Source: Sphingobacterium populi
GTDB taxonomy: Bacteria; Bacteroidota; Bacteroidia; Sphingobacteriales; Sphingobacteriaceae
Reading direction: 5' to 3'
Assembly (NCBI RefSeq): GCF_001586775.1
Contig: NZ_LQXS01000002.1
Span: 124,001-188,000 of the forward strand
Length of the DNA: 64,000 bases
Below the pieces are notes generated by a model. It had not been told where the DNA came from and ran no database searches. It saw only the letters and a program-made list of their open reading frames with translations. Positions 38,791-60,678 of this stretch are shown piece by piece; positions within the stretch are counted from its first letter, which is position 1, and every line of letters starts with the position of its first letter. The translations under genes were made by a program, and so were the position numbers.

Positions 38791-38826
38791 CGTCCTTTCC
38801 ATCTGATCATTCAATAGGTCATTTTG
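38791..38826 (+). promoter_or_regulatory. Phage late promoter P1
   Basis: CGTCCTTTC starts at 38791 and the TCATTTTG box ends at 38826, with the family spacing (TTTG begins 32 nt after the first base of the upstream element). The ATG of the 146-aa gene follows after 4 nt, so the transcript should be leaderless or nearly so. Confidence 0.8.
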
Positions 38827-38830
38827 TACT

Positions 38831-39271
38831 ATGGCTAAATTATTCGAATTACATCAAGGCGACAATATTGGTGGTATTGCTAAAGTTCAAATAGCTCACA
38901 TTACTGATTTCAAGTCATTCAACCCCGTATCATTTCATCCCAATAAAGGCTGGCAAGAGATAGCTTTTATCCCATCTTCTGGAACAATGAAAGGTGAGGA
39001 AAAAGATAGTGACAACGGTGTTTACCATCATTACGAAGGCTTGTTTGAAATACAATACCAATCGAACGTTGTCTCATTTAAATTAAGAACATACATAGGC
39101 AAAGTCTCAGTTTTAAAAATTACTGATCTTAATGGGCGGTCCAGAGTAATCGGAACGCCTGAGGAACCGGTAACAGTGTCAAGAAGTAGCGACACAGGAT
39201 CTGCCCCGAAAGATATGAATCATAATGTGGTGACTTTTTCTGTAGATCAATTACTGCCTGCCCTGCTGTAG
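38831..39271 (+). CDS. Late phage protein of unknown function
   Basis: A 146-aa beta-rich protein (strands such as GLFEIQYQSNVVSFKLRTYIGKVSVLKITD), no signal peptide, expressed on its own from late promoter P1. It lies just before the capsid protease, so it may be a head or decoration protein, or a conserved structural component. No recognised family. The C-terminal segment (SSDTGSAPKDMNHNVVTFSVDQLLPALL) includes a flexible Ser/Gly part. Confidence 0.6.
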   Translation: MAKLFELHQGDNIGGIAKVQIAHITDFKSFNPVSFHPNKGWQEIAFIPSSGTMKGEEKDSDNGVYHHYEGLFEIQYQSNVVSFKLRTYIGKVSVLKITDLNGRSRVIGTPEEPVTVSRSSDTGSAPKDMNHNVVTFSVDQLLPALL

Positions 39272-39279
39272 CTTTTAGC

Positions 39280-39315
39280 TGTCCTTTCTCTCACCTTTTG
39301 ACATGTTGATATTTG
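39280..39315 (+). promoter_or_regulatory. Phage late promoter P2
   Basis: TGTCCTTTC at 39280 and GATATTTG ending at 39315, with the 32-nt family spacing. It drives the protease/capsid/tail-tube operon. The ATG lies 33 nt after the box, so this transcript has a short leader. Confidence 0.85.
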
Positions 39316-39348
39316 AGTTATTGAATTTGTTAATTGGTTGTTAGGTTT

Positions 39349-40476
39349 ATGAAACAAAGATATTTCGCGGTATTGAATTCACAATCTCCGAACGTGGGTG
39401 AGATGAGAATTTATGGTGTAATCGGCAGTTATTGGGATGACAATACTGCGAATGACTTTGTTAGATCTTTCAAAAATCTTGAAAAAACCTGTGATCGAAT
39501 TAATGTACATATCAACTCCCCTGGAGGAAGTGTACATGAAGGATTGCCGATCTGTAATTTGATTAAGGCATCAACTAAAGAAGTTCATACCTATGTGGAT
39601 GGTATTGCCTACAGCATGGGAGCAATGATTGCCATCTCGGCAAAGAAAGGTCGGGTACATATGGCGAAAGGTTCATTGTTAATGTTGCATTCAGTATCCA
39701 CGCTTGTTTATGGAAACGCTTTAGACCTTCGAACGGAAGCTGACGTCTTGGATACATACGATGATGTATTAGGCGATCTAATATCAGCCAGAACTGGCGA
39801 ATCTCTTGAAAACGTTAAAGCAGAATATCTAAATCATCAAGATCATTTTTTTAGTCCTAAACAAGCACTTAACGAAGGTCTGATCGATGTGATTGAAAAT
39901 TACGAGGCTACCGAAACTCCAGATAATGTTCGAAATATGTCGGTCGGCCAAATAGCTGCATGGTATGATCAAAATGCGCAGGAACCTTCAGATGAATTAG
40001 TGAACAAATTGGCGAACCGCCTTAAACCTGTATTAAATCAAAATCTTAATAACGAAAGTATGTTTGGGAATAAATTTTCAAAAATGTCCGCGCTAGCCAA
40101 AAAAGCCGCCGGATCAATCACCGCTCAAGAGCTTGAGGAAGCAAATGCACAGATGGTGGAAAATGGGATTGAAGGCGTTACAATGGTTTTGGATTCCGAA
40201 TTGGAAACGGTTCAGAATGAAAACACGTCATTGAAAACTGACAAAGAAAACCTTTTGAAAGACAAGAAGGCGTTTGAAACTTCTATTTCCGAAAAGGATT
40301 CGGAGATCAAGAAACTGTCGGATGAGATTGCTGCGTTAAAAGGTAAACCAGCTGCGGAAGCAGGGAAGCCATCTACCGACAAGGACGATGTCGTAAACAC
40401 AGGTGAGCAGGAATCTGGCGATGAAGAGTTTATGACTTCTGTTGATCGTAAAGCGCAACAAATGAACGCAAAGTAG
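39349..40476 (+). CDS. ClpP-like prohead protease fused to a scaffold domain
   Basis: A 375-aa protein. The N-terminal 190 residues are an S14/ClpP-type protease: HINSPGGSVHEGLPICN, nucleophile S89 in YSMGAMIA and His114 in LMLHSV. The C-terminal 140 residues form a long coiled coil (NENTSLKTDKENLLKDKKAF) with a Lys/Glu-rich tail, typical of a capsid scaffold. Protease-scaffold fusions direct capsid assembly and then cleave themselves and the capsid precursor. The ATG at 39349 is preferred over TTG 39334. It is directly upstream of the capsid gene. Confidence 0.87.
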   Translation: MKQRYFAVLNSQSPNVGEMRIYGVIGSYWDDNTANDFVRSFKNLEKTCDRINVHINSPGGSVHEGLPICNLIKASTKEVHTYVDGIAYSMGAMIAISAKKGRVHMAKGSLLMLHSVSTLVYGNALDLRTEADVLDTYDDVLGDLISARTGESLENVKAEYLNHQDHFFSPKQALNEGLIDVIENYEATETPDNVRNMSVGQIAAWYDQNAQEPSDELVNKLANRLKPVLNQNLNNESMFGNKFSKMSALAKKAAGSITAQELEEANAQMVENGIEGVTMVLDSELETVQNENTSLKTDKENLLKDKKAFETSISEKDSEIKKLSDEIAALKGKPAAEAGKPSTDKDDVVNTGEQESGDEEFMTSVDRKAQQMNAK

Positions 40477-40524
40477 TTCATTTTGAAAGAACTGAATAAT
40501 TAATCGAAAATCTAATAATAAAAA

Positions 40525-41760
40525 ATGAAAAAATTTGGAGCACTCTACTTGCTAAGCGCAGGACTTGTGATGATTATGGTGTTGATGGGATTCGTGGAGA
40601 TGATCACGGGAAGCAGAGCTGCTGCCTGGGGAGTAGGTGCGTTTTCCTTATTTATGAGTTTTGCCCCCAAAGCTCAAGGCGCTTTCTTTGATACAATGAA
40701 TCCCGATTTATCAGCTCTGGCGAAGTATGTTGGAAAGTATCGAAAGCAAATTTATACAAGATTTATTAACGGCCTTACTATATTTCAAGATGTTAATGCC
40801 CGTTATGGCGTCAAAGATCGGGAGCAATTGTTAAAGCTAAAAATCAATAATCAGCCAAAGCCATTTACAGGGGTATTCAGTCCACGTGGTAATGATATTG
40901 TATTTTCTGATCAGGAGCTAACAGTGGAAAAATGGCAGCGCGATTTCCAAATTCAACCAGATCGATACCGTGATACTTATCTTTCATCATTGCGTGGGCG
41001 TGGAGAAGGAGCTAATAACATGACAATCCCCTTTGCTCAATTTACTTTTGAGCAAGTGAATAAGCAGTTGGCAGCTGATATTAATGATGTGACCGTATGG
41101 TGGGGTGAAGGAAAAACCGCTTTCTCCGCTTATTCTTCGAGTGCTACTTATGCGGTTGATGATCTTATTCATTATGTAGTGAATGGTGAGACTCGCTTTT
41201 ATGAGGTAACGGCAAGTACATCTGCTGGCGAAACGCCATTAACAGCACCTCAAAAATTTAAAGCAGCTGATGCAAAAGCAATCACCGAAGGATTAGGCAC
41301 CAAAATCCGTAAGGCTCGCGCAAATATGTTAATCAAAAATGTTATTTCAACTGGTGCAATCACTAGAGATAACGCATACGAGCAGTTCAAAGCTGTATGG
41401 CGTGGAGCGCCTGAATGGTTACGTACTCAAGGCGGCATTTTGTATTGTTCTTTCTCCAACTTCGAAAAGTTGCTAGACAGTTTTGAGAACATCTCAAAAT
41501 ATACTGAGAAAGATGGCACAATGAAGTATTTGCCGTTGACAGACAAAAAATGTGAATTGCGTCCAGTTACTTGGAAAACTGGCTCTGACTCTTTGGAGGT
41601 TGTATCTAAAGACAATCTAATTGCCGCAACTGATGAAGAAAGCGACTACAGTGATATCAGAGTAATTCCACAAATGTATCATTTGGACTACGGTATTACT
41701 GGAGTTCTTGGATTTGGTGTTCAAGACTATGATGCCATGGCCATCAACGATCAGATCTAG
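40525..41760 (+). CDS. Major capsid protein with a hydrophobic N-terminal pro-region
   Basis: A 411-aa protein identified by position, directly after the protease-scaffold gene and before tail genes. Middle and C-terminal parts are globular (PDLSALAKYVGKYRKQIYTRF; YHLDYGITGVLGFGVQDYDAMAIND). The first 50 residues are unusual: two hydrophobic segments (about 5-24 and 34-48) followed by APKAQGAFFD. That stretch looks like a signal or membrane anchor and is probably a pro-region removed by the protease. Capsid identity is inferred rather than from a recognised motif. Confidence 0.72.
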   Translation: MKKFGALYLLSAGLVMIMVLMGFVEMITGSRAAAWGVGAFSLFMSFAPKAQGAFFDTMNPDLSALAKYVGKYRKQIYTRFINGLTIFQDVNARYGVKDREQLLKLKINNQPKPFTGVFSPRGNDIVFSDQELTVEKWQRDFQIQPDRYRDTYLSSLRGRGEGANNMTIPFAQFTFEQVNKQLAADINDVTVWWGEGKTAFSAYSSSATYAVDDLIHYVVNGETRFYEVTASTSAGETPLTAPQKFKAADAKAITEGLGTKIRKARANMLIKNVISTGAITRDNAYEQFKAVWRGAPEWLRTQGGILYCSFSNFEKLLDSFENISKYTEKDGTMKYLPLTDKKCELRPVTWKTGSDSLEVVSKDNLIAATDEESDYSDIRVIPQMYHLDYGITGVLGFGVQDYDAMAINDQI

Positions 41761-41765
41761 CTAAC

Positions 41766-41790
41766 AAGGGAGCCGTGGTATGGCTCCCTT
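41766..41790 (+). terminator. Hairpin between capsid and downstream gene
   Basis: AAGGGAGCC and GGCTCCCTT pair around GTGGTAT. The T run is weak, so it may act as a partial terminator or mRNA-stabilising hairpin that keeps capsid mRNA abundant relative to the downstream genes. Confidence 0.6.
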
Positions 41791-41815
41791 ATTCTCATTA
41801 TTAATTCAATATCAC

Positions 41816-42199
41816 ATGTCAAAATTTAAAACACTAGAAGAGGCGCAGGAAGCTTACGATAAGTTAGTTTCGGATAGCAAAACTAAAACGGCAGAAGCCG
41901 TAAAAAATGCTCAGGCATCAAAAGATAAAACTATTGAAAACCTGAAGCAATCAAGTGCAAAACTAAAGGATGAAAATGATGGCTTGAAAAAGCAATTGAA
42001 GGAAGCTACCGATGTAGCAAACGATGCCATCGCTCAAGTCAATACTCCAAAAGATAACTTTGTCAAAGCAAAAGTTGGCAGCAAGCAATACAAAGTAAAC
42101 TTCGGCGTAGATGGTAAAACACCGGAGGAAATCGCCAAGGATAACGATGTTTTGAATCGTTTAGTAGAAATTGGTTCTGGAGCAATTACAGAACTTTAA
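41816..42199 (+). CDS. Small coiled-coil phage structural protein
   Basis: A 127-aa protein from ATG 41816. Residues 5-75 are a Lys/Glu/Ala-rich coiled coil (EEAQEAYDKLVSDSKTKTAE; ENLKQSSAKLKDENDGLKKQ), and the C-terminal 45 residues form a small domain (FVKAKVGSKQYKVNF). It lies between capsid and tail tube, consistent with a head-associated or chaperone-like role. No family is recognised. Confidence 0.6.
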   Translation: MSKFKTLEEAQEAYDKLVSDSKTKTAEAVKNAQASKDKTIENLKQSSAKLKDENDGLKKQLKEATDVANDAIAQVNTPKDNFVKAKVGSKQYKVNFGVDGKTPEEIAKDNDVLNRLVEIGSGAITEL

Positions 42200-42212
42200 T
42201 ACAAAATAAGTT

Positions 42213-42818
42213 ATGGGAAGAAACTATAGTAACATTACAGACTTAAAGCAGACGTTTGTTGATGGTCAAGAAAATGCATCTGGACTTCAGGAGAAAGCCT
42301 ACTTTATTCCATTGTCTTGGATGTCAAAAGTGGCTAAAGTTGCGACAGATGGAACCACAGCAGCATCAGTAGTTGAAATTACCGAAAGTCACGAAATGAT
42401 ATCCGGTAAAACCCCTATTGAATTTCAAATGCTCTATTCCAAATCTGGTGCAACAGCTGAGTTGGAAGGTGAAGAATTATCAAAGGTATTTAGACAAGGG
42501 CCCGCGGAGTTCTTTTTGCCAAACATCAACGCCGGTAATTTAGGTACAGCTGCAGCAATCAAAAACTATCGTGGTATTGTATTAATTAAGCGAATTGGTG
42601 GAGGTGACTTCTACCAGATAGGCAGCGAGGAACTGGCAGCACAAGTTGTTTCTGGAAACGTATCATTTGGTACCGGCCCCGCTGGTGAAGTTGGAATTCG
42701 TTCCGCTTTCCAAGCTTATTCGGCAGTGCCATTTTATGTATACAAGGGCGATTTGCCAGGAACACCTGAAGCTGGTGCTCAAGCTCTGGGAAAATCAATT
42801 GCCGAAAAAAATAAGTAA
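42213..42818 (+). CDS. Putative major tail tube protein
   Basis: A 201-aa protein with a beta-rich composition, glycine turns and alternating strands (VVEITESHEMISGKTPIEFQM; YRGIVLIKRIGGGDFYQIGS), and flexible N- and C-termini. Size, position after the capsid block and single-domain character fit a siphovirus tail tube or capsid decoration protein. No sheath gene follows, in keeping with a non-contractile tail. It is the last gene of the P2 operon, followed at once by a strong bidirectional terminator. Confidence 0.5.
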   Translation: MGRNYSNITDLKQTFVDGQENASGLQEKAYFIPLSWMSKVAKVATDGTTAASVVEITESHEMISGKTPIEFQMLYSKSGATAELEGEELSKVFRQGPAEFFLPNINAGNLGTAAAIKNYRGIVLIKRIGGGDFYQIGSEELAAQVVSGNVSFGTGPAGEVGIRSAFQAYSAVPFYVYKGDLPGTPEAGAQALGKSIAEKNK

Positions 42819-42820
42819 GA

Positions 42821-42851
42821 AAAAAAGCTTTCCAAAAGGGAAGCTTTTTTT
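42821..42851. terminator. Bidirectional terminator between tail tube gene and accessory gene
   Basis: AAAAAGCTTTCC and GGGAAGCTTTTT pair around AAAA. It separates the convergent tail-tube and STAS/GHKL-like genes and would stop transcripts from both sides. Confidence 0.85.
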
Positions 42852-43821
42852 AAAGTTGCAGCGATTTTGGCGATGGCCTCAAACCTTTGATTGGCCTATT
42901 ATTGTTGAAGTGATTTAGTAAATCCTTTAACTTCTCGTTGAATCTTACAGGAATATTCATTGAGATTACAGTGCCTGAAAAATTACTTTTTGTGTATATC
43001 GGGGCACCATCATTCCAAATACTTGGAGTGCAATAATATGCACTAAGATTATCACTCGCTATTAAAAAGCTTCCTCCTAATGTACAGATGGATTTTGTCA
43101 TAGCTATGCCCCAGCCAGAATTAACCCATTCTCCCGTTGGCTTATTTTTCATGCCTGAGTATACTTTACCACTAATACCTGGTTCAGTGGCGTATTTTAT
43201 TGCATCAAAAGGTGAAGATATTTTTAGTTTTGGATTTAGTTTTAGACTGTCGGTAAGTCCTACACCAATATCTCTAATGGATATCTGGATTTGGCCTTTT
43301 GTAGGAAAATATTGTGCACATATTCCAAGTTGGGGAGAATCGCTGTGTTCTAAAATATTTCTTAACATTTCACGTATACAATATTCAGTAATTTCACTTG
43401 AAACTTCGTTTAAATGATTCGACAATATTTCTGTGAATTGTTTTACAAAATGGTTTGTCAAATATTCTTGATATAACATACTTCTATCCGCTGCATCTTT
43501 AATTATGTCTTTACAACTTCGAATCATTATCGGAATATAGTTAGGATGAGCATTAGCATTACTTAATTCAGATAATCCAAGAGAGTGGAAAAAATTCATA
43601 TGTAGTGGATATCCTAGGTGATCATAATTTTTCAAATGAACATTGTAAAACTTTTTTTTGCAAAATGCTAATTCACTGCTTAATACTAACATACTGCATG
43701 GATCCATAAATGTGTTTTGCGAAAAATCAATTACAAGATCTTTTGAAGTGTCAGCTTCAGACAATTTATTAATAAATCTAAAAACAGAATAGGAATGTAA
43801 GCTATGCGGAACAATGATCAT
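42850..43821 (-). CDS. STAS-like plus GHKL-ATPase accessory protein
   Basis: A 323-aa protein inserted in reverse inside the late region. The N-terminal 90 residues resemble a STAS-like domain (DLVIDFSQNTFMDPCSMLVLSSE). The C-terminal half has a GHKL ATP-binding fold: N box REMLRNILEHSDS (N155), G1 box IRDIGVGL (D184), and a glycine box SGWGIAMTKSICTLGGSF. There is no phosphoacceptor His, so it is not a classical kinase. Such pairings recall anti-sigma/anti-anti-sigma logic. Its -7 box lies in the P3 promoter region. It is a likely lysogen-expressed accessory gene. Confidence 0.7.
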   Translation of the reverse strand: MIIVPHSLHSYSVFRFINKLSEADTSKDLVIDFSQNTFMDPCSMLVLSSELAFCKKKFYNVHLKNYDHLGYPLHMNFFHSLGLSELSNANAHPNYIPIMIRSCKDIIKDAADRSMLYQEYLTNHFVKQFTEILSNHLNEVSSEITEYCIREMLRNILEHSDSPQLGICAQYFPTKGQIQISIRDIGVGLTDSLKLNPKLKISSPFDAIKYATEPGISGKVYSGMKNKPTGEWVNSGWGIAMTKSICTLGGSFLIASDNLSAYYCTPSIWNDGAPIYTKSNFSGTVISMNIPVRFNEKLKDLLNHFNNNRPIKGLRPSPKSLQL

Positions 43822-43847
43822 AAGTTAAATTTAATAGGTTAATTGTT

Positions 43848-43855
43848 CAAATATA
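43848..43855 (-). promoter_or_regulatory. -7 box of the STAS/GHKL accessory gene
   Basis: The minus strand reads TATATTTG (TAnnTTTG), 26 nt upstream of the accessory ATG. It directly abuts the TGTCC of late promoter P3 on the opposite strand, so binding at P3 could shut this promoter. Confidence 0.65.
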
Positions 43856-43891
43856 TGTCCTTTCCCTGATACTTTCCCTTTCGGATTTTTG
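43856..43891 (+). promoter_or_regulatory. Phage late promoter P3
   Basis: TGTCCTTTC at 43856 and GATTTTTG ending at 43891, with 32-nt spacing. The ATG of the first packaging-operon gene follows after 4 nt, predicting a leaderless message. Confidence 0.85.
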
Positions 43892-43895
43892 ATGT

Positions 43896-44495
43896 ATGGA
43901 GAGTGTGAGAATTTGGCTAAAAAATCCAGATTATGAAAGTGGCGTTCGTCTTTATTCGCAATTCGGAACGAACGAGTTTTTGAAGAATATCTTTCAACAG
44001 GGTGAGAGCGATTATACGCGCAGCAAATTGGTTGAAGAATTATCCGGAATTATCGGAAATTCCGGAATTTCCGGTAATTCCGATCCGATCTCAAAGCCGG
44101 AATTGCCACATCGAGACAATTCATTCCTGCTCAAAAAACTTCGTCATGAGCGCCAGCAAATCTACCGGCAAATAGATGCTAATATGTTTGCCCTTACCAA
44201 GGCTAGATCCGAATCAGTGCTAAAAGAAACTGCATTTCAAATATTAAGATTGCAGAGTCGAAAACAGGAAACATTGGACAAAATCGACCATCTGGAGCTA
44301 CATGGAACCTTACCGGAAAAAGCGGAAAAGCCGGAATTCACAACCCCAGAAATACAGCGTCTATATGTGCAGATATGGAAAACTCGGAAAAGACTGGAAA
44401 AACCGGAATTGCGTAATCGGGAACAAACACAACAGCTACTAAAATCGAAATTGGAGCTATTGGACGAGTTGAGAAAGGAGGCTGCTAATGGCTAA
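43896..44495 (+). CDS. Packaging-operon protein of unknown function with CCGGAAT repeats
   Basis: A 199-aa protein, helical and Lys/Arg/Glu rich, expressed leaderless from P3. The gene contains many CCGGAA(T) units around 44044-44105, 44310-44340 and 44388-44410. These appear in the protein as SGIIGNSGISGNSDPIS and as EKPEF/EKPEL-type repeats between helices. It starts the terminase operon and overlaps the next gene by 8 nt, so it may be a DNA-recognition partner of terminase. The repeats might themselves be a packaging or regulatory signal; neither idea is shown. Confidence 0.55.
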   Translation: MESVRIWLKNPDYESGVRLYSQFGTNEFLKNIFQQGESDYTRSKLVEELSGIIGNSGISGNSDPISKPELPHRDNSFLLKKLRHERQQIYRQIDANMFALTKARSESVLKETAFQILRLQSRKQETLDKIDHLELHGTLPEKAEKPEFTTPEIQRLYVQIWKTRKRLEKPELRNREQTQQLLKSKLELLDELRKEAANG

Positions 44496-45165
44496 TTTTC
44501 TACGTCCGAAAGATGTGAAAGGAACAACAGTTTTAGATCGAATATTAAAAGCCTTCCTAAAAGGCGATTTGGATAAATTGTCCCCTGATGATAAACAGGT
44601 TCTGGAACGGATCAGCGAAGTGGACAACCGCCTACGGAAGGGGTACATAGTGACTGAGCCTAGAGTAAGCGTACTTACTGGAGCGGCATATGATTTTAAG
44701 TATAGCAGGCCATACCGGAAATCTGAGCTTGCACAATGGCAAGTTTCACGATTTCAGGTATCGCTTTCTCAAGCATATGCAGATATTCAAATGGCTGAAA
44801 AGTTCTTCCTAACTACTGAAAGTAGAGCTGATAAAGAATTTGGAAGAGGTATGATGATTCATTGGGGCGAAGATGTTGCAGCAAAAGCGCAGGCTGATGG
44901 TGATTATCGTGCGTTTGCAGCAATATACAGAGAACTCGCAAAAATTCGCCAGCTGGATAGACCAGATGATCAAAACTTCAAGCCAGAGGATTTTCATCCA
45001 ATACGACCTATTATTGTTAGTGATCCATCAGAACTGGATCAACCGTTTCCCAAAACTGACAATCCTGATGCTTTGGTAGCCCGACTACTGAAAGAAATGA
45101 AGAAAGGCGTTATTGAAAAGATACTTGACGATGCAGAAGATGTAGAGGAGGAAGATGGAGAGTAA
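44488..45165 (+). CDS. Putative terminase small subunit
   Basis: A 225-aa mainly helical protein with an acidic C-terminus (ILDDAEDVEEEDGE), lying directly before and overlapping (11 nt) the large terminase gene. The N-terminal half could contain a DNA-binding helix-turn-helix, and the middle contains QVSLSQAYADIQMAEKFF. Assignment is from position and size. It would recognise the packaging start site and stimulate the large subunit. Confidence 0.6.
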   Translation: MANFLRPKDVKGTTVLDRILKAFLKGDLDKLSPDDKQVLERISEVDNRLRKGYIVTEPRVSVLTGAAYDFKYSRPYRKSELAQWQVSRFQVSLSQAYADIQMAEKFFLTTESRADKEFGRGMMIHWGEDVAAKAQADGDYRAFAAIYRELAKIRQLDRPDDQNFKPEDFHPIRPIIVSDPSELDQPFPKTDNPDALVARLLKEMKKGVIEKILDDAEDVEEEDGE

Positions 45166-46807: not shown

Positions 46808-46815
46808 TCAAATTC

Positions 46816-46839
46816 GGCTCGCCGCGTATGAGGCGAGCC
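46816..46839 (+). terminator. GC-rich hairpin after the terminase gene
   Basis: GGCTCGCC and GGCGAGCC form a perfect 8-bp stem around GCGTATGA, 8 nt after the stop codon. The T run (46851-46860) is 11 nt away from the stem, so it may be an imperfect terminator. Confidence 0.6.
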
Positions 46840-47016
46840 ATTCATATATCCTTTTTTTTTGCTCGTTCACTTTCCCTCGCCGATAGTGCGTGGCGGGGTC
46901 ATCTGTCTGTCTCTCTAACGCTATTTTTTCGTTTTTGGAGGTAAACTATTCATTAAAAGGTAGATGTGTCTTTTTTGACTGGAATGATTTGCGTATGAAA
47001 TACTTTCCTTTTGGAG
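46840..47016. other. Non-coding stretch after terminase with a second hairpin
   Basis: After the terminator this stretch holds a further GC-rich fold, CCTCGCC pairing with GGCGGGG around 46875-46900, in otherwise AT-rich DNA, and no gene. A 22-codon frame starting at ATG 46995 is probably spurious. Its position next to terminase makes a packaging site conceivable. Confidence 0.35.
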
Positions 47017-47052
47017 TGTCCTTTCGCGCCTGCGCGTATCTGGAGATATTTG
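47017..47052 (+). promoter_or_regulatory. Phage late promoter P4
   Basis: TGTCCTTTC at 47017 and GATATTTG ending at 47052, 32-nt spacing. The ATG at 47056 follows after 3 nt, again predicting a leaderless message. It drives the portal, connector and lysis genes. Confidence 0.88.
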
Positions 47053-47055
47053 ACC

Positions 47056-47361
47056 ATGGTTGAATTCATAAGTGTGAGAGATATGCTTAATACGATGATG
47101 ATGCGCGGACAGGATAGAGATTTTATCCCGTTTTCCATCACTTTCGTAACGGCAGATCTGAAGAAAGGAACAGGAGGGAAGAGGATCACTTATGATTCAG
47201 CCGTTTTTGTAGGTGGTCCCTCCAAGAGAGAGGATAAAGTGCGTAATCCAAATCACTATGATAATATGACACGGAATATCCGTCATAAAAATAGCGACCG
47301 GATTACGACTATACATCCTCACTTAGTGATAAAATTTAACGGATTGAAAATAACGCAATAA
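47056..47361 (+). CDS. Small late phage protein
   Basis: A 101-aa basic protein from ATG 47056, chosen because the late promoter's -7 box ends 3 nt before it; an in-frame ATG at 47011 lies upstream of the promoter box. The sequence (GKRITYDSAVFVGGPSKRED; NHYDNMTRNIRHKNSDRITT) looks like a beta-hairpin with basic loops. It resembles a small Bacteroidota phage protein placed before the portal gene. Function unknown. Confidence 0.65.
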   Translation: MVEFISVRDMLNTMMMRGQDRDFIPFSITFVTADLKKGTGGKRITYDSAVFVGGPSKREDKVRNPNHYDNMTRNIRHKNSDRITTIHPHLVIKFNGLKITQ

Positions 47362-47364
47362 TGT

Positions 47365-48711: not shown

Positions 48712-48714
48712 ATT

Positions 48715-51313: not shown

Positions 51314-51349
51314 TGTCCTTTCGGTGCCCCTTTTTAAGGGGCATTTTTG
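51314..51349 (+). promoter_or_regulatory. Phage late promoter P5
   Basis: TGTCCTTTC at 51314 and CATTTTTG ending at 51349, 32-nt spacing. The ATG of the tape measure gene at 51355 follows after 5 nt. A terminator hairpin lies between the two elements. Confidence 0.85.
51324..51348 (+). terminator. Terminator embedded in late promoter P5
   Basis: TGCCCC and GGGGCA pair around a 7-nt TTTTTAA loop and are followed by TTTTT, whose end is also the -7 box of promoter P5. It ends the P4 transcript just before the next start. Confidence 0.8.
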
Positions 51350-51354
51350 TTTCT

Positions 51355-54300: not shown

Positions 54301-54954
54301 ACTGAGCGCCAAAAAAAGGCGATCAATGATAAGTACGATAAACTCGAGCGTGCAGAAAAATTGCGCGCTTGGAAAGCCGAGCAAAAGGCATCCTTACTAC
54401 AAGCAGTAATCAGTACCGCATTGGCAGTTACTCGGGCTTTACCTAATATCTTTCTAGCGGCGGCAGCTGGCGCTGCTGGTGCGGCGCAGGTTGCTGTAAT
54501 TGCAAGCCAGAAGGCACCGCAATTTGAAAAGGGCGGTATACTTCCGCAAGGATCGCAACACAGCCAAGGCGGCATCAATCTGGTGGATTCTCGTGGTGGA
54601 AATATTCTAGGGAATATTGAAGGCGGCGAACCTATTCTATCACGAAATACCTATGCAAATAATCGGGAAGTCGTAGACACATTACTTTATAGCTCACAGC
54701 GGAAAAATGGAGCTAGAATTCATATTGGCACTACTGCACTTGAATCTGAAAGATACAGAAGATCATCAGCAATGACAACATCAGCACCGGTAGTACAAGT
54801 TAGTGCACCGCGTACAGATAATAGTGATGTAGTGGCTATCCTGCAACAAATTTTAGAGAAGGATGATTCTAATCGTCAAATTGTGATCAGCAACAGGGTT
54901 TTCCAAGATCATCAAGAGGAGATTGACCGGATTACCAATAGAGTGAATGCATAA
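51355..54954 (+). CDS. Phage tail tape measure protein
   Basis: A 1199-aa protein, the ruler for tail length. The N-terminal 300 residues match the tape measure core family (LSDVMAGVQKTTGLSEEAVD; SNDLLGLAQIAGKLGYTASKDVEGFVRAADKIGVAL). The C-terminal half is a long coiled coil with many Lys/Glu helices and one hydrophobic stretch (AVTRALPNIFLAAAAGAAGAAQ). ATG 51355 is chosen because the late promoter's -7 box ends 5 nt before it; the in-frame upstream ATG at 51217 lies inside the spanin gene. Size points to a medium-length siphovirus tail. Confidence 0.9.
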   Translation: MARGRTDTESVLKLIIDNKQAKTAVNDLRDTYFKLNAELNKMKEADNPELYQRKVQELQKVKRAWDEQRDAIRGVNNQSKELSLNWKTLAKQAAAGLGFAALFQTVKSGLITAIQKNAELSDVMAGVQKTTGLSEEAVDRLNEKFKQMDTRTASNDLLGLAQIAGKLGYTASKDVEGFVRAADKIGVALGEDLGGVEDSVRSLGKLVDIFNIKDDYGLEEALMKVGSAINSLGASGSAAEKNLVDFTQRMAGIAPAAGISLADTLGLAATVDELGQSMESGATAIGQFIVGLGKDIPKNAKIAGMSTAEFAKLLNEDANEALIRVLEGARTAGGGLEALATNMGVLEISGARGIAALGALAENTEMLRRRQRLSNDEFKAGTSVLEEFNTVNNNLAANLDKIWNKLDQMWQSSGFRKWMTDITAAIIDNRSEFEKAMSTYQSTERQFNEMESSLTPLITRYEELKAKGTLNREEHIELRNIIKQLSEQWPIAVEEVDKYGNALSINTGILKNNILEHERYLSIVNKTAIAEGKAERDRLKAREKRLLAQAADIRKSGNISVYNENGDGRTSIRKATNDDILSINGQLEQVRNEIYVTEVDLDKLGANALRKSAEALSSVGTKKFMQDSDAIKKRIEELKDVMANPSTSTVVFEEASEWVDKLEKRLKTLEAKEGEGNKLIGKENKKPKTDAEREKEKQERIAKQTKEHYERMLKEEELFAAQQLINQMEKNDKEIKQLELSYKQKIDKFTEFLTREGVTAEQKANAIQKIEDLKTAKKKATDDLRVKHEEDAMKNILAFREQMIQKSLSEYDQERVRINKHYDSLLKDTGDNAEMKKQIEVSREIEITDAKIREEERLQEVKRQLEQDGENFSHMRREQRIASVVKHYDKEIKLLKEKNSSEIQESEAFKEVIAAYESNKQKEINEINYRYQDERKQMAVGIAQSISDATFSIISNNIAAESSARLSQMQKDRQRELENQNLTERQKKAINDKYDKLERAEKLRAWKAEQKASLLQAVISTALAVTRALPNIFLAAAAGAAGAAQVAVIASQKAPQFEKGGILPQGSQHSQGGINLVDSRGGNILGNIEGGEPILSRNTYANNREVVDTLLYSSQRKNGARIHIGTTALESERYRRSSAMTTSAPVVQVSAPRTDNSDVVAILQQILEKDDSNRQIVISNRVFQDHQEEIDRITNRVNA

Positions 54955-55403
54955 TGGCAAACCACGAACAGAGTCTTATGGAATTGGTACCACGTCGAAT
55001 AGTCTCAGCGTGGGCGAAGTATGCAATTGATCATTTTCAGGAATCGTTACGCAAACACAAAATTGGTATTACTCAAAATCTATTTAATAGCTTCAAACGG
55101 CAGTTAGAAATGAACGGCGGTGATGTCGAAGCGGTAATGATCAAGTTTGCGATGTACGGGCGATTTCGTGATATGGGAGTTGGCCGAGGTGTAAAAGCGT
55201 ATGAAAGGAAAACAAATAAAGCAAACCTAATCGCTAGTAAACGATATGGTGCAAATGTATCCTACGCATCTCGTCAACCCAAGAGATGGTACAGTAAATT
55301 AAAGACTGCTGAATCTCTTCGACTACAGGAAATTTTAATTGAGGATCTGGGGCACCGGATACCGGCATGGCTAGGGGAACAGTGGTCTGATCAATCGAAT
55401 TAA
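54954..55403 (+). CDS. Tail-region protein of unknown function
   Basis: A 149-aa basic protein whose start overlaps the tape measure stop by 1 nt (TAATG). It contains MYGRFRDMGVGRGVKAYERK and SRQPKRWYSKLKT, features seen in small tail-completion or minor tail proteins, but I cannot assign a family. It is part of the P5 operon. Confidence 0.6.
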   Translation: MANHEQSLMELVPRRIVSAWAKYAIDHFQESLRKHKIGITQNLFNSFKRQLEMNGGDVEAVMIKFAMYGRFRDMGVGRGVKAYERKTNKANLIASKRYGANVSYASRQPKRWYSKLKTAESLRLQEILIEDLGHRIPAWLGEQWSDQSN

Positions 55404-55404
55404 T

Positions 55405-56199
55405 ATGAAAGAAATCAAATTGGAATATAAAGGGCGGACTTTGAAGTTTCGTCGAGTGGATGGTTGGAGTAATCTTTCGCGCAGGCAATACCTACTGTGG
55501 TGTGGTATTTTGAGAATGGAGCTACATGTTGATGAAGCTCTGGATCTTGCCACCAGATTATTTTACAACATTTCCGGCAAGTGGTGGAAACTCCTTAATG
55601 CGGCGCATCGTTACGAACTGCGCCAAAAATTGGATTTTTTACTGAGCGCGCAGGCTACGGATAATATACTTGATTCTTTTCGCATAGGGTTTATGAAGTA
55701 TTATGGCCCTGCTCACAAGTTGTCTAATCTGACCATTGCAGAATACCGGCAAACAGAGCTTTATTACGATATGTACCTTCATACTGGACAAACCAAATTC
55801 CTACATCTTTTAGCTGCTACACTTTTTCGGCCTAAAGGTAAGCGTCGAGGGGATGATATACGATTGCCCTTAGATGACTACACTGTTGGTAAACGCGCTA
55901 ATTTATTTCGATGGACATTACATCCAGTAAAGCTGCTAGCTATAAAATTTTATTATGAAAGCTGTCGAACATATGTCCGAAAATCATTTCCAACCATCTA
56001 CAAAACTTCGGCTCCAAGTGATGGGCCATTTACTAGACCTAATACTGGATTGCAAGATTTAGAAGATCATATTTTAGCATATAGTGGGGATAAGTTTGGC
56101 AGCTTCGATCATACACGCAACACCAATCTTTATCTTTTCTTGAAGCACATGGCTGAGCGCATCGATGAGTATGAACGCGCAATGGCTGCGCGGCAGTAA
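55405..56199 (+). CDS. Tail-region protein of unknown function
   Basis: A 264-aa protein 1 nt after the previous gene, rich in Tyr, Arg and Leu (SRRQYLLWCGILRMELHVDE; SNLTIAEYRQTELYYDMYL). It is mostly helical, without recognised motif. It may be a tail assembly chaperone or another minor tail protein. Last gene of the P5 operon; late promoter P6 begins immediately after it. Confidence 0.6.
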   Translation: MKEIKLEYKGRTLKFRRVDGWSNLSRRQYLLWCGILRMELHVDEALDLATRLFYNISGKWWKLLNAAHRYELRQKLDFLLSAQATDNILDSFRIGFMKYYGPAHKLSNLTIAEYRQTELYYDMYLHTGQTKFLHLLAATLFRPKGKRRGDDIRLPLDDYTVGKRANLFRWTLHPVKLLAIKFYYESCRTYVRKSFPTIYKTSAPSDGPFTRPNTGLQDLEDHILAYSGDKFGSFDHTRNTNLYLFLKHMAERIDEYERAMAARQ

Positions 56200-56202
56200 T
56201 AC

Positions 56203-56238
56203 TGTCCTTTCCTTGTGATCTGATGTGCGCGATATTCG
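56203..56238 (+). promoter_or_regulatory. Phage late promoter P6
   Basis: TGTCCTTTC at 56203 and GATATTCG ending at 56238, 32-nt spacing; this is the only family member with a C in the TTTG. The ATG at 56242 follows after 3 nt, predicting a leaderless message. Confidence 0.82.
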
Positions 56239-56241
56239 TGT

Positions 56242-56715
56242 ATGAATCACAGCGACATCTTTGATTATTTTGAGCGCTTAGCTACAGAACATCCTTTGAT
56301 TTCACATGAAGCGGGTAAAAGGGTAAGCTTTTATGTTATTGATGATGGCTATGATTTTGATGAATTAGATAACGCGCTTCGCAATTTGCTCCGTACACCG
56401 GCTTTATTAGTTGATGAACCTGACGGTCGATTGTCGGGTAACGAATCTGCCAACAACACGGATACGATGAATTTTAACATCATGATCGTAGATTCCAAAA
56501 AGGGGAAGGAGCGAGTTCGGGATGTACGCAATCGCTGCAAACAAATCGGTCTTGATCTTGTGATGACAACTCGTAAAAAAAGATTCACAGGTATTGTTCC
56601 AAATAAACTGGTAACCTATGAACTAGAATCGACCTATTCTCCGATAGGTCCACTACTGCTTGGATATTACGGTTATCAGTTTACAATATCTTTTACTATT
56701 CCAATTACTTTTTGA
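56242..56715 (+). CDS. Tail-region protein of unknown function
   Basis: A 157-aa protein, first gene of the P6 operon. The sequence has a C-terminal beta-sandwich look (YELESTYSPIGPLLLGYYGYQFTISFTI), and the middle contains MNFNIMIVDSKKGKERVRDV. It may be a tail terminator or completion protein; no family recognised. It overlaps the next gene by 1 nt. Confidence 0.6.
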   Translation: MNHSDIFDYFERLATEHPLISHEAGKRVSFYVIDDGYDFDELDNALRNLLRTPALLVDEPDGRLSGNESANNTDTMNFNIMIVDSKKGKERVRDVRNRCKQIGLDLVMTTRKKRFTGIVPNKLVTYELESTYSPIGPLLLGYYGYQFTISFTIPITF

Positions 56716-58205
56716 TGGCTATCCAAATCCTTCAGCATCCGCCCGAAGTGGCCTTTAGCCGTAATCCGGTAGTTTTTGAGTTGAAAACCGACAGCTTAAT
56801 TTCTGAGACTGGCAGACCACAGGTATTTGACATCAGTTTGATTGTTCCACCATCGGTAGGATCATACTTTATTCTCTCGTGGAATGGAGCAGATTATATT
56901 TTTGTTTTTCAGACGGAGGTATTCTCAAAAGGCTTTATTCTTCCACTTACCGGTGATGGTGATCGAACATGGCAACAAAATGTAATGGATGTGCTAAAGA
57001 CAAATTACTATGTCGATAAGGATTTTGGTTTATCCATGCCTAATGAAACTACTATTCGATTTGTCTCAAAACATCCGAGCATTAAAATGGGGATTACCCT
57101 AAAGCCTGGATTAAGTAATATCGTAGGATCTGAACAAGTTTCTGCTATTGACAAAGTTTACAGACCTAACTTTGCAATTCATCTTGAACTATGGGTAAAT
57201 AGTACATTAGTTTCTTCCTCCATTGCAGAGGTGGATCAAAGTGGATCTGTTAAGTGGGATATACAAGATTATTTAACCACAATTTTGCAGGCTACTCCGC
57301 CGATACTTCCTCACTTAAACGATACCACACCGTTACGTGATTCTCGCGCAATTAGATCTTTCTTCATCCGCTTTGCTGAAATGTATGGAGAACCACAACG
57401 TGTTCAAACAATACATAATTCGGAAACACTACGTGTAGCATTGGGGGGCATTGATTCGGACGATAGTGTCAATATTCGAGAAAAGTATTCGAACGGACTT
57501 TTCCGGTGGCTAAGCAATGATGTGGGATCTTTACATATTACCCAACCACAATGGGTAAGTATTCTCAACATTGAAGAGGATCGAGCTGATGTATTTGTTT
57601 GCATGAATGTGATCTATAAAGATAATTTACAGCGGCAGTTTCGTAAATCGATAGGAACTTGGTCATCTAATGAAAAGCTTACTATTCCTGTTGGAGTTCC
57701 GCAATGGGATCCAGCTTTGATGCATGATCAAGATATATCACATTTTTCTATTTGGCTGGAATCCGGAGATACACCAATCACAACTATTTATTCTCAAAAG
57801 GTTGAAAGTCGTCTTCTGGTGAACGTGACTAGTTTGGCTTTTATAAATAGTTTGGGCTCACTTTCAACGGTTTGGGTTTATGGGAAAAAAGAATCTGGAT
57901 ATGACATCAAAAGATCCGATAATACATTCGTGAAAAGCAATAATAGGCAAGTGCATCAAACAAGAGAAATGGATATTGCAGCACGCAATACGTGGAAAGT
58001 AAACAGCGGATATCGCGCACTTACAGAAATTGCAGCCTTCCGTGATTTTATGCTATCAGGGTACAAGTACATTATCATTGATGATCGATATGTACCGGTC
58101 ACCTTAAATACGGATAGTATCGTAGATGACGTGGATGGAGATAATTTAAAGGCAATTGCGTTTGAATTGTTAGCGGCAAATGAGAACAGAATTTGGAGTA
58201 AATAG
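56715..58205 (+). CDS. Tail protein (distal/baseplate region)
   Basis: A 496-aa protein. I prefer the ATG at 56715 (a TTG precedes it at 56712). It is beta-rich with several predicted strands, and the first part (HPPEVAFSRNPVVFELKT; RPQVFDISLIV) resembles distal tail proteins. It lies between a tail-completion-like gene and a large 677-aa tail protein, as expected for baseplate components of Bacteroidota siphophages. No recognised family. Confidence 0.6.
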   Translation: MAIQILQHPPEVAFSRNPVVFELKTDSLISETGRPQVFDISLIVPPSVGSYFILSWNGADYIFVFQTEVFSKGFILPLTGDGDRTWQQNVMDVLKTNYYVDKDFGLSMPNETTIRFVSKHPSIKMGITLKPGLSNIVGSEQVSAIDKVYRPNFAIHLELWVNSTLVSSSIAEVDQSGSVKWDIQDYLTTILQATPPILPHLNDTTPLRDSRAIRSFFIRFAEMYGEPQRVQTIHNSETLRVALGGIDSDDSVNIREKYSNGLFRWLSNDVGSLHITQPQWVSILNIEEDRADVFVCMNVIYKDNLQRQFRKSIGTWSSNEKLTIPVGVPQWDPALMHDQDISHFSIWLESGDTPITTIYSQKVESRLLVNVTSLAFINSLGSLSTVWVYGKKESGYDIKRSDNTFVKSNNRQVHQTREMDIAARNTWKVNSGYRALTEIAAFRDFMLSGYKYIIIDDRYVPVTLNTDSIVDDVDGDNLKAIAFELLAANENRIWSK

Positions 58206-60239
58206 ATGGCACACGGTTTTTCAATTACATATAAAAATGTTGATCTAGATATTGAGGATGGAAGCCAGCTCACTGTTGAGTGGTATTCCACTGTATTCAA
58301 TGAATCCGAATTGTTTCGTGGAAGCTACTCCTATCCAGTAAATCTAAAATGGTCTGAAAAGAATCTGTTAGCTTTAAATTTTGCCAACTTAATTGAAAAC
58401 AGATTAGCTCGTATCGATCTGCAAGTTTCCATATCTCTATTTGGACAGACATGGAAAAACGCAACATTAAGCCTAGATATTGAACACCAGAAACTGCCAG
58501 CTGTTCTACTGGTGGATAATGCAATCATATCACAAAAGATTTCTGAGCAAACCTTATCTGATATTTTCATTAAAGTAGATGGACTCAATAGAGATCCTGA
58601 GTCCATGCATATTGGTAACGATCTGGAAGATTCGAAGAGGCAGATGAAATTATCTGCACAGACGCCCTATAGTTTGCCCTACGCCTTTCCTCAATACACA
58701 AACTTTGCTATCTGGGGAAATAGAGATTTAAGCGAATCCGCAATTGTCAACCGTTTTTTATCACAGTACGTACCCGACGGTTCAGGTGATCAATATGATG
58801 TGAGCGGAGATCGCCTATTTAATCCCATGTTCTATTTGGTGTGGGTGATCAAAGAAATATGCAAAAGAGTAGGATTTGAAGCAGAAGGGAGCTTTTTAAA
58901 TGATCCGGAAGTTATGACATGGCTTATCTATAACACTGGATATTACACTGCATCTGAGATATCGGCAGGGAACTTTGTAATCTATCCAGCTAGGCATCTT
59001 CCAAAAATTTCGATCAGCTCATTCTTTAAATTACTTAGAAATGATTTAGGACTATTTATCTATTTCGATTCATTATCAAAAAAGGCGCGTTTCGAAATGC
59101 CAGGGGAGATACTCAGTAATCCATCTGTCCTCGATTTCTCTAGCTGGATTATTGATAAAACGACGAAAGTGAAAGGTGTGAAGGATAAGGCATTTTTATT
59201 CAACCTAGGCGTCGATGATGGGGATGATACATACAATTTTTTGCCGTTCACGCGAAGCAAACGCCTAGGGTTGCCTGGTGATCATAAACCTGTAGACATC
59301 ACCATCAGCGCACCAATTATGAATAGCGGTAAATTTTCGGGATTTATGCCACTACCTTTTAGACAAATTCAGGTTTCTCAGGTTGCCAACGTATATAGTG
59401 ATCAGTATGTCAACAGTAGTGCTTTTAATAAAAAAGGGGAAATTTCGAAGAATGGCTTCACGTTGCGATTTGTTTCATTTCGAGGCATTCGATCTACTGG
59501 GCAGTTTGTTTTTGATCGACTTATACCGTACGCGACTAGCGACAATCGTGATGCTAATGGATTATTAAGGGAGGGCTGGGTCAGTACAAATCTAGACGCA
59601 GCAAATAATTGGCTTGAAACTATTGCGAGCAAATTCTACCGGATGATGACGCTAACGGAATCAGTAGAGTTTGATGCAAGAATACCAATAGATCGATGGA
59701 TGCATGTCAACCCGATGCAGATCAGCAGTATGTCACTATATAACGGAATAAAAACGCCGTTCCTTCCAGATCGAATTACATTTGAACCAGCTTATAGAAG
59801 CAGTAATATTTTTGCGAAAGTCAAAGGCTATTTATACCATAAGGTCTATGGATTGATAAATCCTGCTGACATGCAAGCAGTACCATTCGAAACAGTAGAG
59901 CCTGCTGAACATGTCTATATTGCGTGGAGGTTTATTGATGAAAAAAGAACTGAATTCCCTAACGGAAGCTACGAGATCCACGCAAAACCTCAGTTACTAT
60001 TCTTTTCTGATCCATTTGCGACTATACCTAAAACAGTCTCAAAATTTAAGTTCAGATTTAAAAGGATCCTACATGTGCCTACCGGAGAATCAGCTGCCGA
60101 TTACGATGTTGAGACGGCGGAAAATGTGACATTGTATACGGATGAGGAATGGTTAATAACTGGATATGTAAGTGGAGGCTATTCATACACCACGATTGAA
60201 ATTGTACCAGATGACTTGAATACCTATTCCGGTATTTAG
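58206..60239 (+). CDS. Large tail protein (baseplate hub-like)
   Basis: A 677-aa protein starting right after the previous stop. The first 100 residues (TYKNVDLDIEDGSQLTVEWYS) look like a Dit-type or hub N-terminal domain. The middle part contains FFKLLRNDLGLFIYFD and DYDVETAENVTLYTDEEWLI. By size and position it should be the baseplate hub/tail-associated protein. The stop codon abuts late promoter P7: the TGTCC starts with the next base. Confidence 0.6.
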   Translation: MAHGFSITYKNVDLDIEDGSQLTVEWYSTVFNESELFRGSYSYPVNLKWSEKNLLALNFANLIENRLARIDLQVSISLFGQTWKNATLSLDIEHQKLPAVLLVDNAIISQKISEQTLSDIFIKVDGLNRDPESMHIGNDLEDSKRQMKLSAQTPYSLPYAFPQYTNFAIWGNRDLSESAIVNRFLSQYVPDGSGDQYDVSGDRLFNPMFYLVWVIKEICKRVGFEAEGSFLNDPEVMTWLIYNTGYYTASEISAGNFVIYPARHLPKISISSFFKLLRNDLGLFIYFDSLSKKARFEMPGEILSNPSVLDFSSWIIDKTTKVKGVKDKAFLFNLGVDDGDDTYNFLPFTRSKRLGLPGDHKPVDITISAPIMNSGKFSGFMPLPFRQIQVSQVANVYSDQYVNSSAFNKKGEISKNGFTLRFVSFRGIRSTGQFVFDRLIPYATSDNRDANGLLREGWVSTNLDAANNWLETIASKFYRMMTLTESVEFDARIPIDRWMHVNPMQISSMSLYNGIKTPFLPDRITFEPAYRSSNIFAKVKGYLYHKVYGLINPADMQAVPFETVEPAEHVYIAWRFIDEKRTEFPNGSYEIHAKPQLLFFSDPFATIPKTVSKFKFRFKRILHVPTGESAADYDVETAENVTLYTDEEWLITGYVSGGYSYTTIEIVPDDLNTYSGI

Positions 60240-60275
60240 TGTCCTTTCCCTATGTGACCAATTAAGCAATATTTG
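60240..60275 (+). promoter_or_regulatory. Phage late promoter P7
   Basis: TGTCCTTTC at 60240 and AATATTTG ending at 60275, 32-nt spacing. The ATG at 60280 follows after 4 nt, predicting a leaderless message. Confidence 0.87.
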
Positions 60276-60279
60276 TATC

Positions 60280-60591
60280 ATGTCAATCACAAAAGGAATT
60301 CAAGATCTAACTAAGAAGTTCAGCGCAATTAAAAAACTACAAGAGATGGGCTTAATGAAAGCGTTTGCTGATGAGCCTGTAGTTTACATTTATCCCGAAT
60401 TATGGCTTGGGAAAGATCAAACGTACGTGAAGCAATGGTGCCAAAATGTGCTGACTGTGTGGGGTATTAAACATCCTGTGCAGTATAAAAAGTTAGGGAA
60501 GAATACCGTTTTAGAAGTGCGACATATTGAGGATTCTGCGGCATTATGTAGATATGATGAAGTGAATGGTTTAGTTTTAATTGGTAGATAG
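60280..60591 (+). CDS. Small late phage protein
   Basis: A 103-aa protein, expressed on its own from P7 and followed by a terminator. The first part is helical (KGIQDLTKKFSAIKKLQEMG) and the second a beta-hairpin (VLEVRHIEDSAALCRYDEVN). It contains MVxxV-like WLGKDQTYVKQWCQ. No family recognised; it is a single-gene unit, so its dose may be set separately from the tail operons. Confidence 0.6.
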   Translation: MSITKGIQDLTKKFSAIKKLQEMGLMKAFADEPVVYIYPELWLGKDQTYVKQWCQNVLTVWGIKHPVQYKKLGKNTVLEVRHIEDSAALCRYDEVNGLVLIGR

Positions 60592-60607
60592 TTGTTGTAT
60601 GCTTGGG

Positions 60608-60641
60608 GCCATCTCCGATGTGAATCGTGGATGGCTTTTTT
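60608..60641 (+). terminator. Terminator after the 103-aa gene
   Basis: GCCATC with GATGGC and inner CGAT with ATCG form a long interrupted stem, followed by six T. The T run is immediately followed by the upstream element of late promoter P8. Confidence 0.82.
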
Positions 60642-60642
60642 G

Positions 60643-60678
60643 TGTCCTTTTATTAAGGTTTTAGCGTGATGATATTTG
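60643..60678 (+). promoter_or_regulatory. Phage late promoter P8
   Basis: TGTCCTTTT at 60643 and GATATTTG ending at 60678, 32-nt spacing. The ATG of the 120-aa gene follows after 16 nt. It drives the tail-fibre unit. Confidence 0.85.

What the first reader, a model, noticed from the sequence alone, without database searches (positions are those of the whole stretch)
38791..60678. Eight late promoters with a rigid TGTCCTTTC - 20 nt - GATATTTG architecture
Seen directly: at 38791, 39280, 43856, 47017, 51314, 56203, 60240 and 60643 a GTCCTTT element (preceded by T in seven of eight, followed by C in seven of eight) is followed by an 8-mer of consensus GATATTTG. The TTTG starts exactly 32 nt after the first base of the upstream element in all eight. 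Each lies directly in front of a late transcription unit, and I found none in the early region. The downstream box resembles the Bacteroidota -7 box (TAnnTTTG), but the upstream element replaces the usual -33 TTG. This implies a phage-specific activator or sigma factor.
Basis: partly seen in the sequence, partly recalled or inferred. Interest (0 to 1): 0.93.

Follow-up and report, generated by a model that had tools for sequence, protein, structure and literature searches.

The report
Bacteroidota phages' shared late-gene promoter
A Sphingobacterium prophage carries eight copies of one rigid two-part DNA signal in front of its structural genes; the same signal recurs in many other Bacteroidota phages, and it is likely their late-gene promoter, predicted to be switched on by an uncharacterised phage protein that would bind the upstream part.

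Summary
In detail: all eight sites are real, at one fixed spacing (one has TTCG, not TTTG); shuffled windows give 0.05 such sites on average. The signal is not private to this prophage. An unbiased search finds the same word at the same distance in 14 of 21 phages of Bacteroidota and relatives, including Bacteroides phage BT-TP2. In IMG/VR the full pattern gives at least 120 stretches; spacer minus one gives 10, plus five 7, scrambled upstream word 7.

With the -7 box at -12 to -5 (PMC9723704), six of eight sites put the start codon at about +1, so most late mRNAs should be leaderless.

Predicted mechanism: host sigma-A reads the downstream box and a phage activator at the upstream box replaces the -33 contact. 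Best candidate: the unannotated 180-aa protein at 38030-38572. Its family is in 22 of 22 large motif-bearing IMG/VR records (25 of 26 by a wider count), against 10 of 22 for LuxR-type regulators and 0 of 22 for sigma-70 region 2. It also occurs in phages where I found no such motif. Promoter activity and binding are untested.

The parts
38791..38826 (+). late promoter 1 (CGTCCTTTC-N19-TCATTTTG); ATG of the 146-aa ORF 4 nt after the box
39280..39315 (+). late promoter 2 (TGTCCTTTC-N19-GATATTTG), before the ClpP-type prohead protease and capsid operon; the promoter that keeps a leader (33 nt here; 29-34 in eight group A phages, 48 in G011, 21 in G066)
43856..43891 (+). late promoter 3 (GATTTTTG), before the terminase operon; ATG at 4 nt
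47017..47052 (+). late promoter 4 (GATATTTG), before the portal/adaptor/endolysin genes; ATG at 3 nt
51314..51349 (+). late promoter 5 (CATTTTTG), before the tape-measure gene; ATG at 5 nt; spacer folds as a terminator-like hairpin
51323..51349 (+). inverted repeat (GCCCC/GGGGC) plus T-run; the T-run is part of the -7 box, so a terminator of the upstream unit is predicted to overlap the promoter
   Evidence: sequence
56203..56238 (+). late promoter 6 (GATATTCG, the one deviant box), before tail-region genes; ATG at 3 nt
60240..60275 (+). late promoter 7 (AATATTTG); ATG at 4 nt
60643..60678 (+). late promoter 8 (TGTCCTTTT, GATATTTG); ATG at 16 nt
38030..38572 (+). candidate late activator, 180 aa; no Pfam or NCBIfam match; basic C-terminal helix FDNLKRWYYRNRERREKR; family found in 22 of 22 motif-bearing IMG/VR records of 30 kb or more (25 of 26 by a wider count)
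37799..37936 (.). array upstream of the candidate: 3 x GGACA at 9-bp steps, then 3 x TGTCC at 10-bp steps; same layout in the 5 close relatives examined (G400, G401, G402, G405, G334), not in G011, G066 or the group B/C phages examined
38602..38751 (.). second array (3 x GGACA, 3 x TGTCC) between the candidate gene and late promoter 1; similar in G405 and G334
26746..27330 (+).
25775..63882 (.). prophage extent as given by the collinear IMG/VR record L039 (38,108 bp); integrase at 62701-63882

Best explanation
The eight sites are likely the late promoters of this prophage, each predicted to be read jointly by host sigma-A at the GATATTTG box and by a phage activator, most likely the 180-aa protein encoded at 38030-38572, which would bind TGTCCTTTC in place of the usual -33 contact. 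Shown by sequence: fixed word, fixed spacing, position before late genes, and conservation in other phages. Inferred: with the box at -12 to -5, the upstream element covers -40 to -32, where sigma region 4 would normally sit. The box keeps the -11A and TTTG but usually lacks the -12T, so it should be weak without help and silent until the activator is made. Transcription would then begin at or within a base or two of the A of ATG at six of the eight sites, giving leaderless late mRNAs. The capsid operon (39280) keeps a leader. At 51314 the promoter is folded into what looks like the terminator of the preceding unit.
For: Exact spacing far above chance. Same word and spacing before the same late genes in relatives whose spacers have mostly diverged. 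Unbiased dyad search returns GTCCTT at 31 in 14 of 21 phages examined, top on its strand in 13. IMG/VR: at least 120 stretches with the native spacer, against 10, 7 and 7 for the controls. In the 80 viral loci listed, 45 of 115 further GTCCTTT sites not used for selection (43 distinct sequences) have TTTG at distance 31; no other distance has more than 3. ATG 4 nt after the box: at least 120 stretches; 9 nt after: 19. -11A in 45 of 54, 14 of 14 and 18 of 18 sites of groups A, B and C, although not selected for. Sigma-A box at -12 to -5 in F. psychrophilum (PMC9723704, passages). Candidate family in 25 of 35 multi-site records, 22 of 22 of those of 30 kb or more; GerE above cut-off in 10 of those 22; Sigma70_r2 in 0 of 22. 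MT835542 and BT-TP2 carry the motif and a candidate-family protein, and the group C prophages the motif and the B/C-type protein at the same place; a LuxR-type hit was found in none of these five.
Against: No transcription start, binding or knock-out data. The family also occurs in Leef_1, 6H and Porphyromonas phage 022a, and marginally in Ingeline, where no GTCCTT dyad was found, so the association may only mean that both are common in these phages. Controls for it are few and not matched by phage type: 3 of 24 control records have it, 2 of 7 of those of 30 kb or more. Of the 22 hits one covers only half the model (G813) and two have an in-frame stop (G805, G815). In Mea-Yong924-1 the family member lies far from the head genes. 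Direct comparison of the group A and B/C versions gave no match; the link appears only after enrichment and stays weak. Spacing is not absolutely rigid: one site each in G401 and G404 is one base shorter, and G406 uses one less. No known DNA-binding fold was found.
Confidence: 0.64

Rival explanations
1. Late promoters as above, but the upstream box is read by the LuxR/GerE-type early regulator at 26746-27330.
For: It has a clear GerE DNA-binding domain, is encoded in the early region, and accompanies the motif in groups A and B.
Against: tblastn found none in the group C prophages, MT835542 or BT-TP2, which carry the motif; tblastn also missed the annotated LuxR gene of Leef_1, so that absence is not firm. 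The more sensitive GerE model is above cut-off in only 10 of 22 motif-bearing records of 30 kb or more. G406 keeps a 57% identical copy but a different box, GTCGTT at 30. Group B carries 60-65% identical copies yet its ninth base is mostly A, as in group C, not C as in group A.
Confidence: 0.1
2. A phage-encoded sigma factor recognises both boxes.
For: Two-box fixed-spacing layout resembles a sigma-type promoter; the HTH of the LuxR-type protein resembles sigma-factor models.
Against: No Sigma70 region 2 in any of 35 motif-bearing records; no sigma family among the Pfam matches of 40 window ORFs. The downstream box keeps the host sigma-A pattern.
Confidence: 0.04
3. Late promoters whose upstream box is read by another phage or a host protein; the 38030-38572 family is a linked core gene with another job.
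For: The family is present in phages without a detected motif; one two-site record lacks a hit; no biochemical evidence exists.
Against: The motif is rare in host chromosomes, so a host reader would have no evident regulon of its own. Of the three protein families tested on the same 35 records this one was the most consistent; others were not tested.
Confidence: 0.19
4. The motif acts on RNA or marks terminators, not promoters.
For: 12 of 54 group A sites, 3 of 14 in B and 3 of 18 in C form a stem next to a T-run.
Against: Most sites have no such stem. The start codon lies 3-7 nt after the box at 41 of 54 group A sites, and the box resembles the known -7 element.
Confidence: 0.03

Closest known systems
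Phage T4 middle promoters (MotA/AsiA, sigma appropriation)
   Same: A phage box takes the place of the -35 element while the host -10 type element is kept (PMC2988021, passages).
   Different: The MotA box is centred at -30, 12 +/- 1 bp from the -10; here the box is at -40 to -32, 19 bp from the -7 box. It precedes late, not middle genes. The candidate has no Pfam match. Whether sigma region 4 is remodelled is unknown.
Bacteroidota sigma-A (sigma-ABfr) promoters, TAnnTTTG at -7 and TTTG at -33
   Same: Downstream box: A at -11 and TTTG; position relative to the predicted start (PMC9723704, PMC7366714, passages).
   Different: -12T mostly absent (12 of 54), -33 TTTG replaced by TGTCCTTTC, and one fixed spacing.
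Late activators of Mu (C/Mor) and P2 (Ogr) (recalled)
   Same: Small phage proteins made before late genes that activate several late promoters of one phage (recalled).
   Different: The candidate has no Pfam match at E up to 1, so no sequence link to either family was seen; box position differs (recalled).
Polaribacter phage Leef_1 gp39 and Bacteroides phage BT-TP2 gp8
   Same: Members of the candidate's family, shortly upstream of head genes.
   Different: Annotated only as 'hypothetical protein' and 'transcriptional regulator'; Leef_1 shows no GTCCTT dyad.

Membership tests
Bacteroidota sigma-A promoter | -7 box TAnnTTTG | tested here: inconclusive
   TTTG and -11A kept, -12T in only 12 of 54 group A sites
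Bacteroidota sigma-A promoter | -33 TTTG | tested here: not met
   TGTCCTTTC there; TTTC at -35 to -32 is one base off
Activator-dependent phage promoter, T4 middle type | phage box overlapping the -35 region with the host -10 type box kept | tested here: met
   with the start assigned from PMC9723704; that the box is a protein site is inferred
Activator-dependent phage promoter, T4 middle type | encodes MotA and AsiA homologues | tested here: not met
   no such family among the Pfam matches of the 40 window ORFs scanned, and none for the candidate
Activator-dependent phage promoter, T4 middle type | activator contacts sigma and the box | not testable with these tools
   needs biochemistry
Mu C/Mor or P2 Ogr late activator family | sequence membership | tested here: not met
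   no Pfam family at E up to 1 for the candidate; that Pfam holds models of these families is recalled
Sigma-70 factor | region 2 domain | tested here: not met
   0 of 35 motif-bearing records
Leaderless mRNA | transcription starts at the start codon | tested here: inconclusive
   predicted from spacing: 6 of 8 sites in the window have ATG at 3-5 nt, 41 of 54 in group A at 3-7 nt; no start mapped
Candidate-activator family (alignment A3) | sequence homology across phages | tested here: met
   A1 profile, against ORFs of nine phages: Leef_1 4e-16, laban 1.5e-7, MT835542 4e-6, G406 3e-5, Mea-Yong924-1 6e-5, Porph022a only 0.1; enriched profile: Porph022a 4.6e-18, BT-TP2 7e-14, 6H 4e-7
Candidate-activator family (alignment A3) | group B/C protein is a member | tested here: inconclusive
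   no direct match; after enrichment best member 1.4e-4, most weaker than 0.001; hhalign E 0.0013 but probability 18% over 130 columns; same order of predicted helices and strands

The most novel reading that the evidence does not exclude
Tailed phages across Bacteroidota share an ancient late-gene switch: one family of small basic proteins, in many of these phages encoded just before the head genes, replaces sigma region 4 at a TGTC-type box and fires promoters fused to start codons, so that late virion proteins are made from leaderless mRNAs. Each lineage has its own box variant (TGTCCTTTC, TGTCCTTTA, TGTCGTTTC, TGTCACAAC), which would give private, non-crossing late programmes in cells carrying several prophages.
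Probability: 0.43. Interest if true: 0.88.

Novelty: new variant of a known kind. Interest (0 to 1): 0.76.

Why it matters
How phages of Bacteroidota, a major gut and soil phylum with its own promoter code, turn on their late genes did not turn up in the papers I could search. This gives a signal that can be scanned in any genome, a named candidate activator, and a sharp prediction about leaderless late mRNAs in a phylum where measured leaderless or very short-leader mRNAs are a few per cent (5.5% in F. psychrophilum, PMC9723704; about 3.7% of leaders under 10 nt in B. thetaiotaomicron, PMC7366714; passages). It would also offer an activator-promoter pair for phylum-specific genetics.

Full report
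What is there. The window holds a 38-kb prophage (about 25775-63882, collinear with IMG/VR record L039). Its genus is that of Sphingobacterium alkalisoli: G328, 'same genus', has a contig of 276,143 bases, the length of the contig that names. The late region runs from 38.8 to 61 kb: ClpP-type prohead protease (39334), terminase (45155), portal (47365), endolysin (49666), tape measure (51217). The eight sites of the finding are all real and at one spacing, with TTCG in place of TTTG at 56203. GTCCTTT-N24-TTTG occurs 7 times in the window against 0.05 in shuffles.

Conservation. In six related IMG/VR phages (G400-G405) and in prophages of the same family the same word recurs before late genes, with the spacing kept and the spacer mostly changed. 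A seventh, G406, has no site at this spacing. I sorted the phages into group A (window, G400-G405, G334, G011, G066; G328 has the same sites as G400), group B (G147, G083, G331) and group C (G208, G038, G193). One search found 55, 14 and 20 non-identical sites; dropping those without an ORF start within 60 nt (1, 0 and 2) leaves 54, 14 and 18. GTCCTTT was the search key there, so its invariance proves nothing. The -11A was not selected and is present in 45, 14 and 18. The ninth base is mostly C in group A (46 of 54) and mostly A in groups B and C (9 of 14, 13 of 18). The sites within a group are partly orthologous, so these are not independent events.

Unbiased test. For 21 phages I asked which 6-mer recurs at a fixed distance before TTTG. 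GTCCTT at 31 is top on its strand in 13 and second in one (G147): the window, 10 of its relatives, Mea-Yong924-1 (recorded as a Microcystis phage), a human faecal phage (MT835542) and Bacteroides phage BT-TP2. G406 gives GTCGTT at 30 and Flavobacterium phage laban GTCACA at 31. G011 shows it in none of its top six dyads; Leef_1, 6H, Ingeline and Porph022a give nothing alike. The p-values are not corrected for the number of words tried; the recurrence of one word at one distance is the evidence.

Public collections. TGTCCTTT-N21-ATNTTTG-N4-ATG gave at least 120 stretches in IMG/VR, where the scan hit its limit. Spacer minus one gave 10, plus five 7, scrambled upstream word 7, ATG nine nt after the box 19. 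Among the 80 loci listed, 45 of 115 further GTCCTTT sites had TTTG at exactly 31, 43 of them distinct in sequence; a few of these loci belong to the group A phages. In the genome collection 80 of 116 stretches were listed, again at the limit; I read 54 of the 80 titles as Bacteroidota, 24 as other groups and 2 as unnamed (some genus-to-phylum assignments recalled). In those 80, 10 of 88 further sites were at 31, the commonest distance; the next had 5. Some of the other-phylum rows are probably chance.

Leaderless arrangement. In F. psychrophilum the sigma-A box lies at -12 to -5 (PMC9723704, passage), so +1 is the fifth base after the last G. In the window the ATG follows after 4, 33, 4, 3, 5, 3, 4 and 16 nt. 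In group A 41 of 54 sites have it at 3-7 nt; in B 5 of 14 and in C 5 of 18, most of the rest at 15-24. The protease/capsid promoter keeps a leader: 29-34 nt in eight group A phages, 48 in G011, 21 in G066. That Sphingobacterium places the box as F. psychrophilum does is assumed.

Terminator overlap. At 51314 and at the tape-measure promoter of G400-G405 the spacer region forms a stem ending at the T-run of the box, with arms whose letters differ between phages. Stem-plus-T-run sites number 12 of 54 in group A against about 8% with shuffled spacers (a modest excess), and 3 of 14 and 3 of 18 in B and C against about 1.4%. Such sites seem to end the previous unit and start the next; this is inferred.

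The candidate activator. The gene just upstream of promoter 1 (38030-38572) has no GTCCTTT promoter in front of it. It encodes 180 aa without a Pfam or NCBIfam match and only weak PHROG matches of unknown function. The protein search gave 30 hits, the window's own included, none with a functional name. In an alignment of 26 sequences many invariant residues lie in the basic C-terminal helix (K138, R139, W140, R143, R145, R147, R151). AlphaFold2 gives mean pLDDT 84 with three C-terminal helices. Iterated profile searches link it to Leef_1 gp39, laban, MT835542, G406, Mea-Yong924-1, Porph022a, BT-TP2 gp8 and 6H, and marginally Ingeline. In Mea-Yong924-1 the member lies at 8977-9450, far from the head genes at about 19.7 kb. 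The group B/C protein, at the matching place, joins only weakly, though its model has the same order of elements; I could not superpose the models.

Association test. I took the 35 viral loci with at least one further site at 31 and searched their records. The family is in 25 of 35, and in 22 of 22 records of 30 kb or more (20 of 20 without G400 and G402, close to the profile's seeds); in one of the 22 the hit covers half the model (G813), in two it holds a stop (G805, G815). Of the 41 records given for the remaining loci 25 have it, 20 of 26 at 30 kb or more. Four of the 80 loci (L108, L131, L157, L162) were not given as handles because each lies in a record searched through another locus. 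The split by locus misses records with two sites in separate or doubly matching loci: adding G404, G823, G850 and G829 gives 26 records of 30 kb or more with at least two distinct sites, of which 25 have the family. The exception is G829 (44.6 kb; L119, L157). Control records: 3 of 24, all three from the spacer-minus-one list, where each carries TGTCCTTTC before an ATG. For comparison on the same 35, GerE is above cut-off in 10, all among the 22, and Sigma70_r2 in none. The controls are few and not matched for phage type, and the family also exists where I found no motif. The test favours this family over the two rivals but does not prove that it reads the box.

TGTCC arrays. Upstream of the candidate gene lie three GGACA at 9-bp steps and three TGTCC at 10-bp steps. 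The layout is the same in the five close relatives examined (G400, G401, G402, G405, G334); G011 and the B/C phages examined (G147, G208, G193) have none there and G066 a single copy. The shared TGTCC core suggests autoregulation, but operators of another protein are as possible.

Comparison and novelty. It would work most like a T4 middle promoter, where a phage box takes the place of -35 and the host box is kept (PMC2988021, passages), but box position, gene class and protein family differ. No prior report turned up in the searches listed. I rate it a new variant of a known kind.

Noticed in passing
37799-37936 and 38602-38751: Two arrays of three GGACA and three TGTCC at mostly 9-10 bp steps flank the candidate activator gene; the upstream one has the same layout in five close relatives. 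Purpose unknown.
   Followed up: partly
L069 (G406), - strand: A relative with a 57% identical LuxR-type protein uses TGTCGTTT-type boxes at 30, one base shorter; a possible specificity variant.
   Followed up: partly
L102 (Flavobacterium phage laban), - strand: TGTCACAA-type box at 31 before several late genes (3 with exact TTTG); another possible variant.
   Followed up: partly
42850-43821: Reverse-strand gene with a weak histidine-kinase-like ATPase match, lying between two late units.
   Followed up: no
36015-37696: UmuC/UmuD-type pair (IMS polymerase and S24 peptidase) inside the prophage, divergent from the candidate activator.
   Followed up: no
L062 (G402), L063 (G403), L065 (G404), L067 (G405), near one end: A further TGTCCTTTG-N19-TAATATTG site with ATG 4 nt on; TGTCC clusters lie nearby in G402, G403 and G405.
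   Followed up: no
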